Part shown: piece by piece, positions 40,097 to 46,286 of the stretch
Numbering within the stretch: the stretch's first letter is position 1
Layout: the number at the start of each line of letters is the position of its first letter
NCBI RefSeq assembly: GCF_005490785.1
Contig: NZ_CP027295.1
Span: 2,976,001 to 3,040,000, forward strand
Length of the DNA: 64,000 nucleotides
Direction of reading: 5' to 3'
Source of the DNA: Brachybacterium sp. SGAir0954
GTDB lineage: Bacteria > Actinomycetota > Actinomycetes > Actinomycetales > Dermabacteraceae
The notes under the pieces: model-generated
The model's input: only the letters and a program-made list of their open reading frames with translations
Told to the model about the DNA's origin: nothing
Databases searched by the model: none
Position numbers and translations under genes: made by a program

Positions 40097-41791
40097 TCAG
40101 GCTTCGACGACGATCGGGATGATCACCGGCTTGCGGCGCAGCCGCTGCGAGACGTAGCGGCCCACGACGCGGCGCATGACCTGCTGCAGCTGATGCGTGT
40201 CGCGACGGTTGGTCTGGTCCGCGACGGCCTGCTCGAGGGCCTTCACGATCTCCGGGCGGATCCGCTCGAAGACCTCGTCGTCCTCCGCCACGCCGCGCGC
40301 GTGGATCTCCGGACCCGCGATGAGCGCGCCCGTCTCGGAGTTGACGACCGCGAACAGGGAGATGAAGCCCTCGTCGCCGAGGATGCGGCGGTCCTTGAGA
40401 TCGGCCTCGGAGATCTCGCCCACGCTCGAGCCGTCGACGTAGACGTAGCCGTTGGGCACCTCGCCCACGACCTTCGCGACGCCGTCCTTGAGGTCGACGA
40501 CGTGGCCGTCCTTCGCGAGGATCACGCGCTCGGGGGCGACGCCCGTCGACTCGGCGATCCGCCCGTTCGCGATGAGGTGGCGCACCTCGCCGTGGACCGG
40601 CATGACGTTCTTCGGCCGCACGATGTTGTAGCAGTACAGCAGCTCGCCCGCGCTCGCATGGCCCGAGGTGTGGACCTTCGCGTTGCTCTTGTGCACGACC
40701 TCGGCGCCGAGCGCCATGAGGCCGTTGATGATGCGGAACACCGCGTTCTCGTTGCCCGGGATGAGCGAGGAGGCGAGGACGACGACGTCACCCGGGCCCA
40801 CGCTCACACGGTGGTCGCGGTTCGCGATCCGGCCCAGGGCCGCCATCGGCTCGCCCTGCGAGCCGGTGCACATGAGCACGACCTTGTCGTCGGGCAGGTT
40901 GTCGATCTTGCGGACGTCCACGAGCGTGTTGTCCGGGACGTCGAGGTAGCCCATGTCCGCGGCGATGCCCATGTTGCGCACCATCGAGCGGCCCACGAAG
41001 GCGACCTTGCGGCCGTGCGCGGCGGCGGCGTCGAGCACCTGCTGCACACGATGGACATGGCTCGAGAAGGAGGCGACGACGATCTTCTGCCGTGCGCGCC
41101 CGAAGATCTGGTTCAGGACCGGGCCGATCTCCTGCTCGCCGAGCGTGAACCCGGGGACCTCCGCGTTCGTGGAGTCCGTCATGAACAGGTCCACCCCGGC
41201 CTCGCCGAGCCGCGCGAAGGCGCGCAGGTCGGTGATGCGGCCGTCGAGCGGCAGCTGGTCCATCTTGAAGTCGCCCGTGTGCAGCACGGTGCCGGCGCCG
41301 GTCGCGATGTGCACCGCGAGCGCGTCCGGGATCGAGTGGTTCACGGCCACGAACTCGCAGTCGAAGGGGCCGAAGGACTCCTTCTGACCCTCCTTCACCG
41401 CGAAGGTGTAGGGCGTGATGCGGTGCTCCTTGAGCTTCGCCTCGATGAAGGCGAGCGTGAGCTGGCTGCCCACGAGAGGGATGTCCGGCTTCTGCCGCAG
41501 GAGATAGGGGACCGCGCCGATGTGGTCCTCGTGCCCGTGGGTGAGGATGATCGCGGAGATGTCGTCGAGACGGTCGGAGATGACGTCGAAGTCCGGGAGG
41601 ATCAGGTCCACACCGGGCTGGGCGTCCTCGGGGAAGAGGACGCCGCAGTCGACCACGAGCAGCCGCCCCTGGTACTCGAAGACGGTCATGTTGCGGCCGA
41701 CGTCGCCCAGGCCACCGAGCGGGATGACCCGCATGGTGTCATTCTTCAGCTTGGGCGGCTGGTTCAGCCGGTGGGAGTAGGCAGTGCTCAT
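40097..41791 (-). CDS. rnj: Ribonuclease J
   Basis: 564 residues. The metallo-beta-lactamase core has LTHGHEDHIGAVPYL (metal ligands), VNHSIPD and LHTGDFKMD; the beta-CASP domain has ASFSSHVHR, LMCTGSQGEP and SGHASAGEL. The C-terminal domain after residue 450 ends in a basic stretch. RNase J is a 5'-3' exonuclease and endonuclease central to mRNA turnover and rRNA processing. Its ATG overlaps the dapA stop (ATGA), the common dapA-rnj pair of actinobacteria. Confidence 0.95.
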   Translation of the reverse strand: MSTAYSHRLNQPPKLKNDTMRVIPLGGLGDVGRNMTVFEYQGRLLVVDCGVLFPEDAQPGVDLILPDFDVISDRLDDISAIILTHGHEDHIGAVPYLLRQKPDIPLVGSQLTLAFIEAKLKEHRITPYTFAVKEGQKESFGPFDCEFVAVNHSIPDALAVHIATGAGTVLHTGDFKMDQLPLDGRITDLRAFARLGEAGVDLFMTDSTNAEVPGFTLGEQEIGPVLNQIFGRARQKIVVASFSSHVHRVQQVLDAAAAHGRKVAFVGRSMVRNMGIAADMGYLDVPDNTLVDVRKIDNLPDDKVVLMCTGSQGEPMAALGRIANRDHRVSVGPGDVVVLASSLIPGNENAVFRIINGLMALGAEVVHKSNAKVHTSGHASAGELLYCYNIVRPKNVMPVHGEVRHLIANGRIAESTGVAPERVILAKDGHVVDLKDGVAKVVGEVPNGYVYVDGSSVGEISEADLKDRRILGDEGFISLFAVVNSETGALIAGPEIHARGVAEDDEVFERIRPEIVKALEQAVADQTNRRDTHQLQQVMRRVVGRYVSQRLRRKPVIIPIVVEA

Positions 41792-42726
41792 TCGGGCCTC
41801 CGAGAGGGATCCAGTGGGGGGATGCCGACGGCGGCGTCGAGGGCAGCGGCCAGAGCGCGCACCTGGTCGTCGTCGGCGGGGACATGGGGGCCGCGCAGGG
41901 CGGCATGGGGCAGGACGCCCTGCAGGTGCAGGGCATGCTTCGCGGCGACGACGCCCGGCATGCGGGTCATGATCGCCTCGACCAGCGGGGCGAGGGACGT
42001 GCTCGCCGCCCGGGCCGCGGCGAGATCGCCGCGGTCCACGGCGTCGATCATCGCCCGCTCGAGATCACCGGCCACCTGACCGACGACGGAGACGATGCCC
42101 GCGGCGCCGATGGCGAGCCACGGGAGGTTCAGCGCGTCCTCGCCCGAGTAGTAGGCGAGGCCGGTCTGCACCATCACCAGGGACGCCTCGAGCAGATCGC
42201 CCTTGGCGTCCTTGACCGCGACGATCCGCTCGTGCTCGCCGAGGGCGAGGAGGGTGTCGCGGGAGAAGGGGACCCCGGTGCGACCGGGGATGTCGTACAG
42301 CATGACCGGCAGGTCCGTCGCGTCCGCGACGGCGCGCACGTGCGCGAGGATGCCGGCCTGGGAGGGCTTGGAGTAGTACGGGGAGACCACGAGCAGACCG
42401 TCGAGGCCGAGGTCCGCATGGGCCCGGGCGAGCTCGATCGAGTGGACGGTGTCGTTGCTGCCGACCCCGGCGACGATGCTGACCTCCGGGCCGACGGCCG
42501 CGCGCACGGCCTTCGCCAGCTCGATCTTCTCCCGGTCGGAGACGGTCGGCGACTCGCCAGTGGTGCCGGAGACGACGATCTGGTCGTGGCCGTGCTCGAC
42601 GAGGTGCGCGGCGAGGGCGGACGCGGCGTCGAGGTCCAGGGCGCGGCCGTCCGCGCTGAAGGGGGTCACCATCGCGGTGCCCACGGCGCCGAAGGGGCGG
42701 GCGGGGCGCGTGTCGGAGGTGGTCAT
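41788..42726 (-). CDS. dapA: 4-hydroxy-tetrahydrodipicolinate synthase DapA
   Basis: 312 residues. It condenses pyruvate with aspartate semialdehyde, first committed step to lysine and DAP. SGTTGESPTVS binds pyruvate; YYSKPSQAGILAH carries the catalytic Tyr; YDIPGRTGV and the Schiff-base Lys in VAVKDAKGD are present. The final 25 residues are a short variable helix. It feeds DapB (47946-48716) and, later, DapF and MurE of this window. Confidence 0.95.
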   Translation of the reverse strand: MTTSDTRPARPFGAVGTAMVTPFSADGRALDLDAASALAAHLVEHGHDQIVVSGTTGESPTVSDREKIELAKAVRAAVGPEVSIVAGVGSNDTVHSIELARAHADLGLDGLLVVSPYYSKPSQAGILAHVRAVADATDLPVMLYDIPGRTGVPFSRDTLLALGEHERIVAVKDAKGDLLEASLVMVQTGLAYYSGEDALNLPWLAIGAAGIVSVVGQVAGDLERAMIDAVDRGDLAAARAASTSLAPLVEAIMTRMPGVVAAKHALHLQGVLPHAALRGPHVPADDDQVRALAAALDAAVGIPPLDPSRRPE

Positions 42727-42857: not shown

Positions 42858-45464
42858 TCAGCCCCTCGGCGCGGCGGGAGCGGGCGCGGCCCCGTCGCCG
42901 GGCTGCTCGCCCCGGTCCACGAGGATCGCCATCGGTGTGCGCTGTCGGCCCTGGCCCAGCGGGTTGTCCGCGAAGGTCGCCTCGAGGTCCGCCTTCGGTG
43001 TGGACACGTCGCTGCCCAGCACGTTGCGGCCGATGTCGTTGGCGTCCATGACGACCGTGCCGCGGAAGCTCTCGCGCAGGGCCGCGGGGATGTCCGCGGC
43101 GCGGATCGCCGCGGAGAGCCGCGCCGCGACCACGTCGGGGTCCTTCGGCGGGAGCTTCGCGGAGACGTTCGAGGGGAAGGCCGAGTACGGCGTGGGGCCG
43201 TCGATGGCCCGCACGTTGTCACCGACGACCTCGTAGAACACGCCGCGGCGGCGCAGCAGCTTGCCGGCGGCGCCCGCCGCGGAGGCCATGAGCACCCGCG
43301 GGAGACCGACCTCGCGGATCGCGAGCTCCATCGTGGTCGGGTCCCCGAGGCCGATGCCGGCCGGGGTGCGCGTCACGAAGCGGCTGAGCACCTTCGCCGA
43401 GGGGCGCGGGTGGATCTCCCAGGTGTACCAGGAGCGGCCCTGGGTGATGGCGACGATCTTCTCGCTGATCACGTAGTACCAGGGGGCGCCCTCGGGGACC
43501 GTGCCGGCGGGCACCGACGCGGCGAAGCGCTCCACCCGCTCGCGCACGATCGCGTCGAGGTCGTCGCCGCGGCCCACGAGCTCCGTCTGCAGGGGCAGTC
43601 GGCGCCAGGTGTGCCCGTCGGTCTCGGAGACGAGGTCGAGGCGCTTGCCGGGGTTCGGCTCGTGATCGGCCTTGGCGGCCTCGATCGCGTCGGGGTCGAG
43701 ATCCTCCCCCGCAGTCTCGGGGGCGGCCTGCTCCTCGGTCCCCGCTGCGGTGCGCGGGTCGATGACGGCGCGCAGCCACAGCTCGAGGGAGAGGAGTCGC
43801 CAGATCTGCTCGCTGCGGTGGTGCTCGGGGTGGGCGGCGACGTCCTCGAAGAAGGCGAGCACGCTGCGCGCGTCCACGTAGGGCCGTGCGGCGAAGGACT
43901 CGGAGGCGAGGATCGCGCGCACGTCGTCGGCGTGACGGACGATCCAGGCGTGCTCGTCCAGGACGGCGGCCTCGGGGCGGGCGGGGAGATCGGCGCCGGG
44001 GGCGAGCCCCGAGAGCACCGAGCGCAGCAGGGAGCCGTCGCGCGCGGCGCGCAGCAGGGACGCGTCGTCGAGGGAGGCGAGCAGCCGCAGCAGCCCGGCG
44101 TCCACGAGCGGGGAGGCGCTGCGCAGACCCTCGTGGTGCGCGGCCGCGCGCGAGGCGCGCAGGGCCACCGGGAGGTCACCGTGCAGCACCTCCTCGACGA
44201 GGGCCGCGCGGAGGCTCGCGGGAGCGGCGCGCCGCTCGCTGCGGTGGGAGGCGACGAAGGCGTTCGCGAGCAGGGCCTCGGTGGGCACCTCGGCCCGCGG
44301 GGCGAGGGCGCCCCGGGCGGCGCCGAGGAGCGCGCCGCGGGAGGCGAGGGCGCCCTGGGCGAGGTCACCGATCCGGCGGCCGGCGCGGAGCCGGCGCAGG
44401 CCGGACACCTGGTGGGCGGCGCTCGAGGGGAGCAGCTGCTCCGCGCCGACGCCGTCCACGAGCGCGCCGGCGCCGGCCTCGCGGGCGGAGCGGGCGAGGG
44501 TGAGGGCGGTGTGCGCGCGGGCGGAGGGCACCGGCTCGCCGAGGGCGGTCGAGAGCTCGTCGAGGTCCGCGAGCAGGTCGCCCTGGGAGTCCCGGGCGGT
44601 GATCAGCTCCATGTCACGGCCGCGGGCGGCGTGCAGCGCGGTGACGGCGGAGGGCACGGAGCCGCTCGGGCGCGTCGCGGCGACCGCGCGGACGCCCTCG
44701 GGGGCGGCGGCCGCGACGGCGAGCGAGCCGAGGTCCCCGGTCAGGGCGATCGCGTCCCCGGCGGTCGTGGCGCGGCGCACGGAGGCGGCGAGCAGGCTCG
44801 TCACCTCGGCGACGGCCGCGTCGTCGAGAGGTCGGCCCGGGGCGGCGGCGATCCCCTGGAGCTCCTCGGCGAGCGGGGCGGCATCGGAGAGCGAGAGCCC
44901 GTCCGGCCCGTGACGCAGCACCTGGCCCGGCAGCAGTCGGTGGATCCCCTCGACGAAGGTGCGCTCGTCGGTGTCCGCGACGCCGTCGAGGAGGAAGCGG
45001 TGGATCGTGCGCTCGTCGGGTCGCGCGGGCACGGGCCCGGCGTCCAGCAGCGCGTCGATCCGGGAGGCGAACAGCAGGTGCTCCTGCGCGGCGTCCGTCC
45101 ACCAGTACAGCGGTGCGCGTCCGAGCCCGTCGCGCGCGAGCAGGAGCGTGCCGGTGGCCTCGTCGTGGAGCGCGAGGGCGTAGGGCTGCTCGATCGCGGC
45201 GAGGTCGAGGCCGGCGAGGTCGTCGCCCAGCGAGTCCAGCAGCGCGGCGGCGGCGGCGTCCGTGAGGCCGTCGGCCAGCAGCACGCGGCCGATCGCCTCG
45301 CTCCGCGCGCCGCCGATGCCGGGCCCCACGAGGGTCAGCGCGCCGCCGGGCACGGAGCGGCCGACGGCCTCTCCCCCGGCAGGTGCCGCGAGCGCCGCGC
45401 CGAGGCGTGCGGCGATCGCGTCGTGGTCGGCGCCGGATCCGTGGCTGCCGGAGATTCCGCTCAT
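42858..45464 (-). CDS. Fusion: degenerate asparagine-synthetase-like region plus CofE-like gamma-glutamyl ligase domain
   Basis: 868 residues. Residues 1-200 resemble a class II glutamine amidotransferase (MSGISG start, ARDGLGRAPLYW at 110-121, FASRIDALL), but the catalytic Cys2 is Ser. Residues 200-590 resemble the AsnB synthetase domain, yet the ATP PP-loop SGGxDS reads LTGDLGS (241-247), so neither active site looks functional. Residues 622-852 match the CofE-like family: ISEKIVAITQGR (665-676), GIGLGDPTT, AIDGPTPY (753-760), VVMDANDIGRNVLG (804-817). CofE adds gamma-linked glutamate to F420-0; this bacterial branch has unproven substrates. AAGGA precedes the ATG by seven bases. HAD phosphatase lies upstream, dapA downstream. 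Function unknown; amino acid ligation to a cell wall precursor or cofactor is a guess. Confidence 0.72.
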   Translation of the reverse strand: MSGISGSHGSGADHDAIAARLGAALAAPAGGEAVGRSVPGGALTLVGPGIGGARSEAIGRVLLADGLTDAAAAALLDSLGDDLAGLDLAAIEQPYALALHDEATGTLLLARDGLGRAPLYWWTDAAQEHLLFASRIDALLDAGPVPARPDERTIHRFLLDGVADTDERTFVEGIHRLLPGQVLRHGPDGLSLSDAAPLAEELQGIAAAPGRPLDDAAVAEVTSLLAASVRRATTAGDAIALTGDLGSLAVAAAAPEGVRAVAATRPSGSVPSAVTALHAARGRDMELITARDSQGDLLADLDELSTALGEPVPSARAHTALTLARSAREAGAGALVDGVGAEQLLPSSAAHQVSGLRRLRAGRRIGDLAQGALASRGALLGAARGALAPRAEVPTEALLANAFVASHRSERRAAPASLRAALVEEVLHGDLPVALRASRAAAHHEGLRSASPLVDAGLLRLLASLDDASLLRAARDGSLLRSVLSGLAPGADLPARPEAAVLDEHAWIVRHADDVRAILASESFAARPYVDARSVLAFFEDVAAHPEHHRSEQIWRLLSLELWLRAVIDPRTAAGTEEQAAPETAGEDLDPDAIEAAKADHEPNPGKRLDLVSETDGHTWRRLPLQTELVGRGDDLDAIVRERVERFAASVPAGTVPEGAPWYYVISEKIVAITQGRSWYTWEIHPRPSAKVLSRFVTRTPAGIGLGDPTTMELAIREVGLPRVLMASAAGAAGKLLRRRGVFYEVVGDNVRAIDGPTPYSAFPSNVSAKLPPKDPDVVAARLSAAIRAADIPAALRESFRGTVVMDANDIGRNVLGSDVSTPKADLEATFADNPLGQGRQRTPMAILVDRGEQPGDGAAPAPAAPRG

Positions 45465-45542: not shown

Positions 45543-46286
45543 TCAGGCCCCGCGCCGCCCGAGGCGCAGCGTGCCCTCGACGACGGTCACCTCGAGGTCG
45601 TCGAGGGAGGTCACGAGGGCATCGGCGAGCGGGGAGAGGGAATCCGCCGGGGTCGTGGTGGTCAGCGCCACCGTCCGCGCACCCGCCGCGCGGCCCGCGG
45701 TGAGGCCACCGGCCGAGTCCTCCACGACGATCGTCCGCTCCCCCGGGACGCCGAGCCGGCGGGCGCCGAGCAGGAACGGCTCCGGATCCGGCTTGCCCCG
45801 GGTGACCTGGTCGGCCGTGACGAGGTGGGCGGGGACGGGCAGGCCGGTGCGCGCCCAGCGCGCCTCGAAGAGCGGGCGCGTGCAGGAGGTGACGATCGTC
45901 CAGGTGGGCCGGCCGAGCTGCTCCGCGGCGGCCTCGAGCTCCTCGAGCACGCGGCGGGTGCCGGGGAGCGTGACGATCCCGGCGACGTCGGCGATCTCGA
46001 GCTCCTCGATGCGGCGGTGCGCGGCGTCGATCTGCTCGGCGTCCAGCTCCGGGAGCAGCTCGGCGAGGATCTGCCGTGCGGGCCGCCCGTGCATCGTGTG
46101 GTCGAAGGGGCGCGGGGCGTCGAGCTCTGCCAGCAGGGTCCCCCAGGCGCGCTCCACGGAGGGGCCCGAGTCGATGAGGGTGCCGTCCATGTCGAGCAGG
46201 AGGGCATCCGCGACCAGCGGCAGCGTGTCCTCCCGGGAGGACGGTTCCGAGGCGGCGGGGCCCGGGGCGGAGGAGGGGGTGGTCAT
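45543..46286 (-). CDS. HAD superfamily phosphatase (beta-phosphoglucomutase/sugar-phosphatase type)
   Basis: 247 residues. HAD motif I LLLDMDGTLIDS (nucleophile Asp near residue 32), motif II TSCTRP, motif III Lys in RGKPDPEPFLLGA and motif IV VVEDSAGG are all present, with a helical C1 cap between I and II. The pattern fits small-molecule phosphatases such as sugar-phosphate or glycerol-3-phosphate phosphatases; substrate unknown. It lies 78 bases upstream of the AsnB/CofE-like fusion on the same strand. Confidence 0.82.
   Translation of the reverse strand: MTTPSSAPGPAASEPSSREDTLPLVADALLLDMDGTLIDSGPSVERAWGTLLAELDAPRPFDHTMHGRPARQILAELLPELDAEQIDAAHRRIEELEIADVAGIVTLPGTRRVLEELEAAAEQLGRPTWTIVTSCTRPLFEARWARTGLPVPAHLVTADQVTRGKPDPEPFLLGARRLGVPGERTIVVEDSAGGLTAGRAAGARTVALTTTTPADSLSPLADALVTSLDDLEVTVVEGTLRLGRRGA

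What the first reader, a model, noticed from the sequence alone, without database searches (positions are those of the whole stretch)
42858..45464. AsnB-like pseudo-amidotransferase fused to a CofE-like gamma-glutamyl ligase, next to dapA
One 868-residue protein joins a class II amidotransferase/asparagine-synthetase region to a CofE-like ligase domain. Seen directly: Cys2 is Ser (MSGISG), the PP-loop SGGxDS is LTGDLGS, while C-terminal blocks ISEKIVAITQGR, AIDGPTPY and VVMDANDIGRNVLG look conserved. So the ammonia-making half is probably a scaffold or regulator and the ligase half does the chemistry. The gene lies between a HAD phosphatase and dapA-rnj. The window encodes meso-DAP synthesis. 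If the organism is Brachybacterium-like, its reported A4gamma peptidoglycan has D-Glu/D-Asp interpeptide bridges whose ligases are not established to my knowledge; a gamma-glutamyl ligase beside dapA is a candidate. This last step is speculation. I know of no described system with this fusion.
Basis: partly seen in the sequence, partly recalled or inferred. Interest (0 to 1): 0.85.

Follow-up and report, generated by a model that had tools for sequence, protein, structure and literature searches.

The report
AsnB–CofE fusion replacing MurT–GatD
A bacterial protein that joins a worn-out amidotransferase to a well-preserved ligase sits exactly where close relatives keep the cell-wall genes murT and gatD, and is rarely found together with them, so it likely took over their job of capping a cell-wall building block.

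Summary
In detail: an 868-aa protein (minus strand, 45464-42858) joins an AsnB-like half lacking Cys2 and the SGGxDS loop to a CofE-fold half; predicted models confirm both folds. The fusion is patchily spread over Actinobacteria and Saccharibacteria. Of 110 full-length hits examined (one is this protein), 94 keep Cys2 and the loop, so this copy is decayed, as are others. The dead half evolves fast (dN/dS about 1, ligase half 0.27) yet keeps its hydrophobic core beyond a neutral simulation. The A4gamma-bridge idea fails: the fusion occurs in A3gamma Intrasporangium calvum, is missing from 10 nearly complete genomes of the window's family, and adjoins dapA only in Brachybacterium. Instead, in that family the CofE-like half and MurT exclude each other (MurT in 0 of 35 with it, 9 of 12 without), and in all five MurT-bearing genomes of the genus murT-gatD fills the slot the fusion holds here. 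So the fusion likely replaces MurT-GatD and acts on the D-Glu alpha-carboxyl of a peptidoglycan precursor; glycine is a possible donor. Of 45 named genomes with the gene, 6 also carry a MurT-GatD pair. No biochemistry exists.

The parts
42858..45464 (-). AsnB-like/CofE-like fusion gene, 868 aa
   Evidence: homologues
44865..45464 (-). Class II glutaminase (GATase) fold, residues about 1-200; Cys2 replaced by Ser (45461-45459)
43740..44837 (-). AsnB-type ATP-binding synthetase fold, residues about 210-575; decayed loop TGDLGS at 44741-44724 and DGVGAEQ (DGQGADE in intact homologues) at 44456-44436
42906..43637 (-). CofE-like ligase domain, residues about 610-853 (ISEKIVAITQGR 43469-43434, AIDGPTPY 43208-43185, VVMDANDIGRNVLG 43055-43014, DNPLGQGRQRTP 42968-42933)
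45543..46286 (-). HAD hydrolase, upstream edge of the slot
41788..42726 (-). dapA, downstream edge of the slot; name from the finding, orthologues traced
40097..41791 (-). rnj (RNase J), conserved downstream neighbour; name from the finding, not tested against a library

Best explanation
This fusion likely does the job of MurT-GatD: its CofE-like half is predicted to activate the alpha-carboxyl of the stem-peptide D-Glu in a peptidoglycan precursor with an NTP and join an amine to it, while its AsnB-like half has lost its catalytic motifs and is predicted to keep its fold. Shown: both folds on predicted models, loss of the AsnB motifs, selection on the ligase half, mutual exclusion with MurT in the window's family, and occupation of the murT-gatD slot. 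Inferred: the substrate, an acyl-phosphate intermediate (by analogy with CofE and MurT), and the nucleophile, which I take to be an amino acid such as glycine, or ammonia. In relatives with an intact AsnB half, that half would supply glutamine-derived ammonia or amidate a second carboxyl of the same peptide. In this copy it would remain as a structural partner whose frame is protected because the selected domain lies downstream of it.
For: Mutual exclusion: of 47 family genomes, 35 have the CofE-like half and 0 of these have MurT; 9 of the 12 without it have MurT (Fisher p 1.6e-7, not corrected for kinship). Same slot: in 5 of 5 genomes of the window's genus with MurT the order is HAD-murT-gatD-thyX-dapA-rnj-ftsK; three of 16 named Brachybacterium loci read HAD-fusion-thyX-dapA, the other 13 show no thyX in the stretch held. 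Three genomes whose divergent fusion lies elsewhere, and one with neither, have only thyX or nothing between HAD and dapA. In a class sample, all 11 CofE-like genomes lack MurT while 158 of 296 have it (p 1.8e-4, or 0.0044 without the four weak matches). Of 45 named genomes with the gene, 38 have no MurT match. The genome has its own FbiB/CofE (145.8 bits) and FolC (335 bits), so the fusion is not needed for F420 or folate tails. I. calvum, a species with the fusion, has glycine on the D-Glu alpha-carboxyl, and Brachybacterium vulturis, which carries it, has glycine in its wall hydrolysate. MurT with a dead GatD still amidates lipid II from ammonia, and the pairing itself matters (PMC3266927 passage): a precedent for a dead but needed partner.
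Against: Six of 45 named genomes carry a MurT-GatD pair besides the CofE-like gene (Actinopolymorpha 3, Stackebrandtia 1, Microlunatus 2, the last with weak MurT scores), and Terracoccus has a sub-threshold MurT-like gene. One family genome (G012, 99% complete) has neither. Saccharibacteria may lack MurT anyway; the completeness of the 45 is not told. Kinship inflates the counts: within family f19 alone p is 0.075. No genomic partner recurs across clades. GatD absence was not searched genome-wide. Substrate and nucleophile are untested. I. calvum (strain PheN6) has an intact AsnB half, so loss of that half does not simply explain glycine. Where decay is partial, glutaminase motifs go while the PP-loop stays (P0051, P0054, Terrabacter), which fits a mere ammonia supplier poorly.
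Confidence: 0.55

Rival explanations
1. The ligase half builds the D-Glu/D-Asp interpeptide bridge of A4gamma peptidoglycan.
For: CofE-fold ligase near dapA; Dermabacteraceae are described as A4gamma.
Against: Present in A3gamma I. calvum and in Saccharibacteria; absent from 10 near-complete genomes of the window's family; dapA adjacency only in Brachybacterium among the loci examined.
Confidence: 0.08
2. The enzyme makes a small soluble compound, for example a capped dipeptide as in N-acetylglutaminylglutamine amide synthesis, and its exclusion from MurT is a by-product of lineage history.
For: TIGR03104 (NAGGN amidotransferase) scores 276-310 bits on the five intact members scanned, below its cut-off of 570; single gene without a stable partner; some genomes hold both systems.
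Against: Exact slot exchange with murT-gatD in the window's genus and exclusion in several lineages.
Confidence: 0.2
3. The CofE-like half polyglutamylates F420 or folate.
For: Fold match to CofE; papers on folate synthesis name COG1478, the CofE group as I recall it (listing only).
Against: Separate FbiB/CofE and FolC in the same genome; profile score under the F420_ligase cut-off.
Confidence: 0.04
4. The AsnB-like half of this copy is a pure passenger, kept only because its reading frame leads into the selected domain.
For: dN/dS 1.0-1.2 for the N half with an internal control of 0.2-0.3 in the C half; Micrococcus has a much shortened N half, and Actinopolymorpha and f19 copies have none.
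Against: 51-56% of changed core positions stay hydrophobic against 19-28% in a neutral simulation, 0 of 40 runs reaching the observed value in each test; decayed pairs of Dermabacter and Microlunatus show N-half dN/dS 0.23 and 0.30.
Confidence: 0.3

Closest known systems
CofE / FbiB N-terminal domain, F420-0:gamma-glutamyl ligase (PF01996; PDB 2phn, 7uld)
   Different: About 21% identity over the aligned residues, profile score under cut-off, large invariant blocks of its own (AIDGPTxYS, PSNVSAKL, DNPxGQG); the genome has a separate FbiB/CofE.
Glutamine-dependent asparagine synthetase AsnB and relatives (TIGR01536; TsnB9, beta-lactam synthetase)
   Same: Two-domain fold; the five intact homologues scanned score 373-424 bits, over the cut-off of 267.
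   Different: This copy scores 75.5 bits and has lost Cys2, the PP-loop and DGQGADE. Even intact members read DGQGADE where E. coli AsnB, as I recall, reads SGEGSDE.
MurT-GatD lipid II isoglutaminyl synthase
   Same: Same chromosomal slot in the window's genus; mutually exclusive distribution in its family; also an NTP-dependent ligase half plus a glutaminase half.
   Different: No homology: Mur ligase plus class I GATase there, CofE fold plus class II GATase here.
N-acetylglutaminylglutamine amide system (TIGR03104 amidotransferase plus ligase)
   Same: AsnB-like amidotransferase working with a peptide ligase (recalled).
   Different: Intact members score 276-310 of the 570 bits required; the ligase there is of another fold (recalled).

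Membership tests
F420-0:gamma-glutamyl ligase (PF01996/CofE) | CofE fold | tested here: met
F420-0:gamma-glutamyl ligase (PF01996/CofE) | Profile score over curated cut-off | tested here: not met
   19 bits whole protein, 24.8 domain, cut-off 25
F420-0:gamma-glutamyl ligase (PF01996/CofE) | Metal- and GTP-binding residues | tested here: inconclusive
   Only short motifs align; no residue-level structural alignment available
F420-0:gamma-glutamyl ligase (PF01996/CofE) | Glutamate ligation to F420 | not testable with these tools
   A separate FbiB/CofE is present
Asparagine synthase AsnB (TIGR01536) | Fold | tested here: met
Asparagine synthase AsnB (TIGR01536) | Catalytic Cys2 | tested here: not met
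   Ser2
Asparagine synthase AsnB (TIGR01536) | PP-loop SGGxDS | tested here: not met
   TGDLGS
Asparagine synthase AsnB (TIGR01536) | Curated score | tested here: not met
   75.5 of 267.1 bits
MurT-GatD | Mur ligase and MurT_C domains | tested here: not met
   None in the Pfam scan of the protein; no MurT_C match in the genome
MurT-GatD (works like) | Replaces it in the genome | tested here: met
   Family exclusion: MurT in 0 of 35 with the CofE-like half, 9 of 12 without; same slot in 5 of 5; 6 or 7 of 45 exceptions elsewhere
MurT-GatD (works like) | Modifies the D-Glu alpha-carboxyl of lipid II | not testable with these tools
   needs muropeptide or enzyme data
A4gamma interpeptide ligase | Distribution follows A4gamma wall type | tested here: not met
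   wall types from papers, not from the very strains

The most novel reading that the evidence does not exclude
The CofE-like domain is the long-missing ligase that puts glycine (or another amino acid) on the alpha-carboxyl of D-Glu in actinobacterial peptidoglycan, including the ATP-dependent, tRNA-independent glycine addition reported for Micrococcus in the 1960s (recalled, not read here). The AsnB-CofE fusion is then a second, unrelated solution to capping the D-Glu carboxyl, and it has repeatedly displaced MurT-GatD.
Probability: 0.3. Interest if true: 0.9.

Novelty: new variant of a known kind. Interest (0 to 1): 0.75.

Why it matters
Where a source names these fusion proteins, the name is mostly 'asparagine synthase' or 'asparagine synthase-related'. 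If the replacement reading is right, they are a cell-wall enzyme: an unrelated counterpart of MurT-GatD, which is essential in Staphylococcus aureus (PMC3266927 abstract and passages). That would help explain how some actinobacteria manage without MurT, offer a gene for amino-acid caps on D-Glu, and extend the CofE fold to cell-wall chemistry. The repeated decay of one half of a fused enzyme, with its core kept in this copy, is also a natural series from enzyme to pseudo-enzyme.

Tried and rejected
Conserved gene neighbours across clades: among 52 diverse loci, no family apart from the gene itself recurred in more than 3 of 9 groups, and none made a plausible partner. F420 and folate roles: separate FbiB/CofE and FolC present. 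Plasmid carriage: no tblastn match in 72,556 plasmid records. ATPgrasp_ST as a universal partner: a homologous ORF adjoins the standalone gene in 5 of 5 f19 genomes (two confirmed by Pfam), but no genome of the window's family passes the cut-off. Global hhalign of the domain against FbiB gave no useful alignment; the local one gave only short motifs. A first tree had four misplaced rows and was rebuilt. A search for the recalled E348 work on asparagine synthetase found no paper, so that point stays recalled. Literature searches for this fusion or its link to peptidoglycan listed no paper that, by its title or the start of its abstract, describes it; only open-licence PMC papers are held.

Full report

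THE FAMILY. The fusion is not unique. Hits span Brachybacterium, Helcobacillus, Knoellia, Terrabacter, Flexivirga, Intrasporangium, Janibacter, Schaalia, Gleimia, Microlunatus, Stackebrandtia, Coriobacteria, Saccharibacteria and Nomurabacteria. It is patchy: a scan of 84,980 species genomes by two short peptide patterns gave 138 relatives, of which 80 were kept; in a sample of the class, 11 of 296 genomes match, four of them only weakly. Copies without an N half exist in f19 genomes and Actinopolymorpha, and short proteins of this kind are common in the protein search.

DECAY OF THE N HALF. Of the 120 best hits listed for the C half (758 passed), 110 are at least 760 aa long, one of them this protein; 97 have Cys2, 98 the SGG[LIV]DS loop and 94 both. 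The window copy has neither. Typing 90 sequences (89 loci and the window) by four motifs gave 52 intact, 12 partial, 11 lost, 8 without an N half, and 7 left untyped because of contig or locus edges or breaks. On a quick ML tree of 92 C domains (33 of 89 inner branches weak; five f19 rows and four edge or odd rows left out, eleven rows added), the lost state needs at least 12 changes (20 lost of 86 typed rows), or 13 with partial states included (34 of 86). In ten pairs with intact N halves the two halves evolve alike (N/C dN ratio 0.2-1.9; N-half dN/dS 0.03-0.23). In six decayed or partly decayed pairs the ratio is 1.9-5.6, so the ranges touch. For window against B. squillarum the N half has dN/dS 1.01 and the C half 0.27 at equal dS (0.54 and 0.53) (own NG86 script; high GC and uncertain alignment at 35-44% identity may bias the N half upward).

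A DEAD FOLD THAT IS KEPT. Only 26% of the invariant polar/Gly/Cys positions and 37% of the invariant hydrophobic ones survive in the window's N half, against 97% of all invariant C-half positions. Yet at conserved hydrophobic positions that changed, 51-56% are still hydrophobic. A neutral simulation that forbids only stops gives 19-28%, with 0 of 40 runs reaching the observed value for each of five starting genes and two GC settings (one fixed transition bias, no indels). So the core appears to be under selection although the catalytic residues are gone. The frame itself would be protected by the selected domain downstream (inference).

NOT F420, NOT FOLATE, NOT AN A4GAMMA BRIDGE. The same genome has a separate FbiB/CofE (145.8 bits) and FolC (335 bits), and no AsnB over the TIGR01536 cut-off. 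Dermabacteraceae are described as A4gamma (PMC6090031 passages), but 10 family genomes at least 96% complete lack the C half, and I. calvum, A3gamma with LL-DAP, is a species that has the fusion (PMC3035309 passage on the type strain; locus L083 is strain PheN6). dapA is within about 1.1 kb of the fusion in 27 of the 35 family genomes with the C half, all of genus g1; in three g1 genomes and five of other genera it is not. dapA is in 16 of 16 named Brachybacterium loci and in none of 64 others, 51 of them over 19 kb long.

THE SLOT. In 47 genomes of the family, MurT is found in 0 of the 35 with the CofE-like half and in 9 of the 12 without it; of the other three, one is 99% complete (G012), one 74% (G001), and one, 88% complete (G006), shows an AsnB-like N half at a contig edge. 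In all five g1 genomes with MurT the order is HAD-murT-gatD-thyX-dapA-rnj-ftsK (MurT_C, GATase_3 and Thy1 by Pfam in one of them, MurT_C in a second). Three of 16 named Brachybacterium loci keep thyX beside the fusion; the other 13, two of them short, show no thyX. In G030, G034 and G009, whose divergent fusion lies elsewhere, and in G012, HAD and dapA have only thyX or nothing between them. In the other five genera of f1 the two never meet either: g24 and g25 have the fusion, g26 and g27 have MurT, and g23 has one genome with MurT and three with the fusion. In the class sample, all 11 CofE-like genomes lack MurT while 158 of 296 have it (p 1.8e-4; 0.0044 with the seven strong matches alone; no correction for kinship); within family f19 it is 5 with CofE-like only, 5 with MurT only (weak scores) and 3 with neither (p 0.075).

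RESULTS AGAINST. Of 45 named genomes carrying the gene (chosen by me from the 80), 38 have no MurT match. Three Actinopolymorpha (standalone gene), one Stackebrandtia and two Microlunatus (weak MurT_C, clear GatD-like neighbour) have a pair, and Terracoccus has a sub-threshold MurT-like gene with no GatD seen in the short stretch. Actinopolymorpha and Stackebrandtia sit in a divergent branch of the tree; Microlunatus and Terracoccus do not. Exclusion is therefore strong but not universal.

MECHANISM. CofE adds glutamate through GTP-dependent activation of the acceptor (PMC10861534 passages), and MurT-GatD amidates the alpha-carboxyl of D-Glu in lipid II with ATP (PMC3266927 abstract and passages). 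The simplest reading is that the CofE-like half is the counterpart of MurT and the AsnB half was the counterpart of GatD, or did a second amidation; the second fits better with partial copies that lose glutaminase motifs before the PP-loop. The donor is open. Glycine is hinted at by I. calvum (Gly on the D-Glu alpha-carboxyl), by glycine in the wall hydrolysates of B. vulturis and B. avium (B. vulturis carries the fusion; B. avium at least a 193-aa piece), and by Micrococcus, which has the gene with a much shortened N half and whose glycine-capped D-Glu I recall from the older literature. B. faecium is described with meso-DAP, Ala and Glu only (PMC3035206 passage); its genome was not identified here.

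VERDICT. The new reading, replacement of MurT-GatD, rests on locus exchange and mutual exclusion and needs a muropeptide or enzyme test.

Noticed in passing
L169-L172 (f19 genomes): In the four loci read, the standalone CofE-like gene overlaps the end of a sigma-70 gene (Sigma70 regions 1.2-4 by Pfam in the one scanned) and faces an ATPgrasp_ST-like gene (5 of 5 f19 genomes for the latter); alanine racemase genes are close by in three of the four.
   Followed up: partly
L106, L116, L119 at about 9.9-10.7 kb: In Actinopolymorpha the standalone CofE-like gene follows a lexA-like gene (named from its sequence, not from a library).
   Followed up: no
L178, L179 (G034, G030): Two genomes of the window's genus hold a divergent, deeply decayed fusion away from dapA that groups with Actinomycetaceae and Dermabacter copies, suggesting transfer.
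   Followed up: partly
L093:6197-8074: A Coriobacteriales MAG has a second AsnB-like gene (625 aa) directly upstream of the fusion.
   Followed up: no
protein P0212: A Saccharimonadales protein fuses a redoxin domain to the CofE-like domain.
   Followed up: no
L093, L100, L115, L118, L123: Fusions in Coriobacteria, Saccharibacteria and Nomurabacteria group together on the tree, suggesting transfer between phyla.
   Followed up: no
intact homologues, DGQGADE motif: Even intact members carry Gln where TsnB9 has Glu and E. coli AsnB has Glu348 (recalled), so they may not make asparagine.
   Followed up: partly
protein P0137: The Micrococcus sp. KRD070 copy holds a stretch foreign to the family in the middle, probably an assembly or gene chimera.
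   Followed up: no
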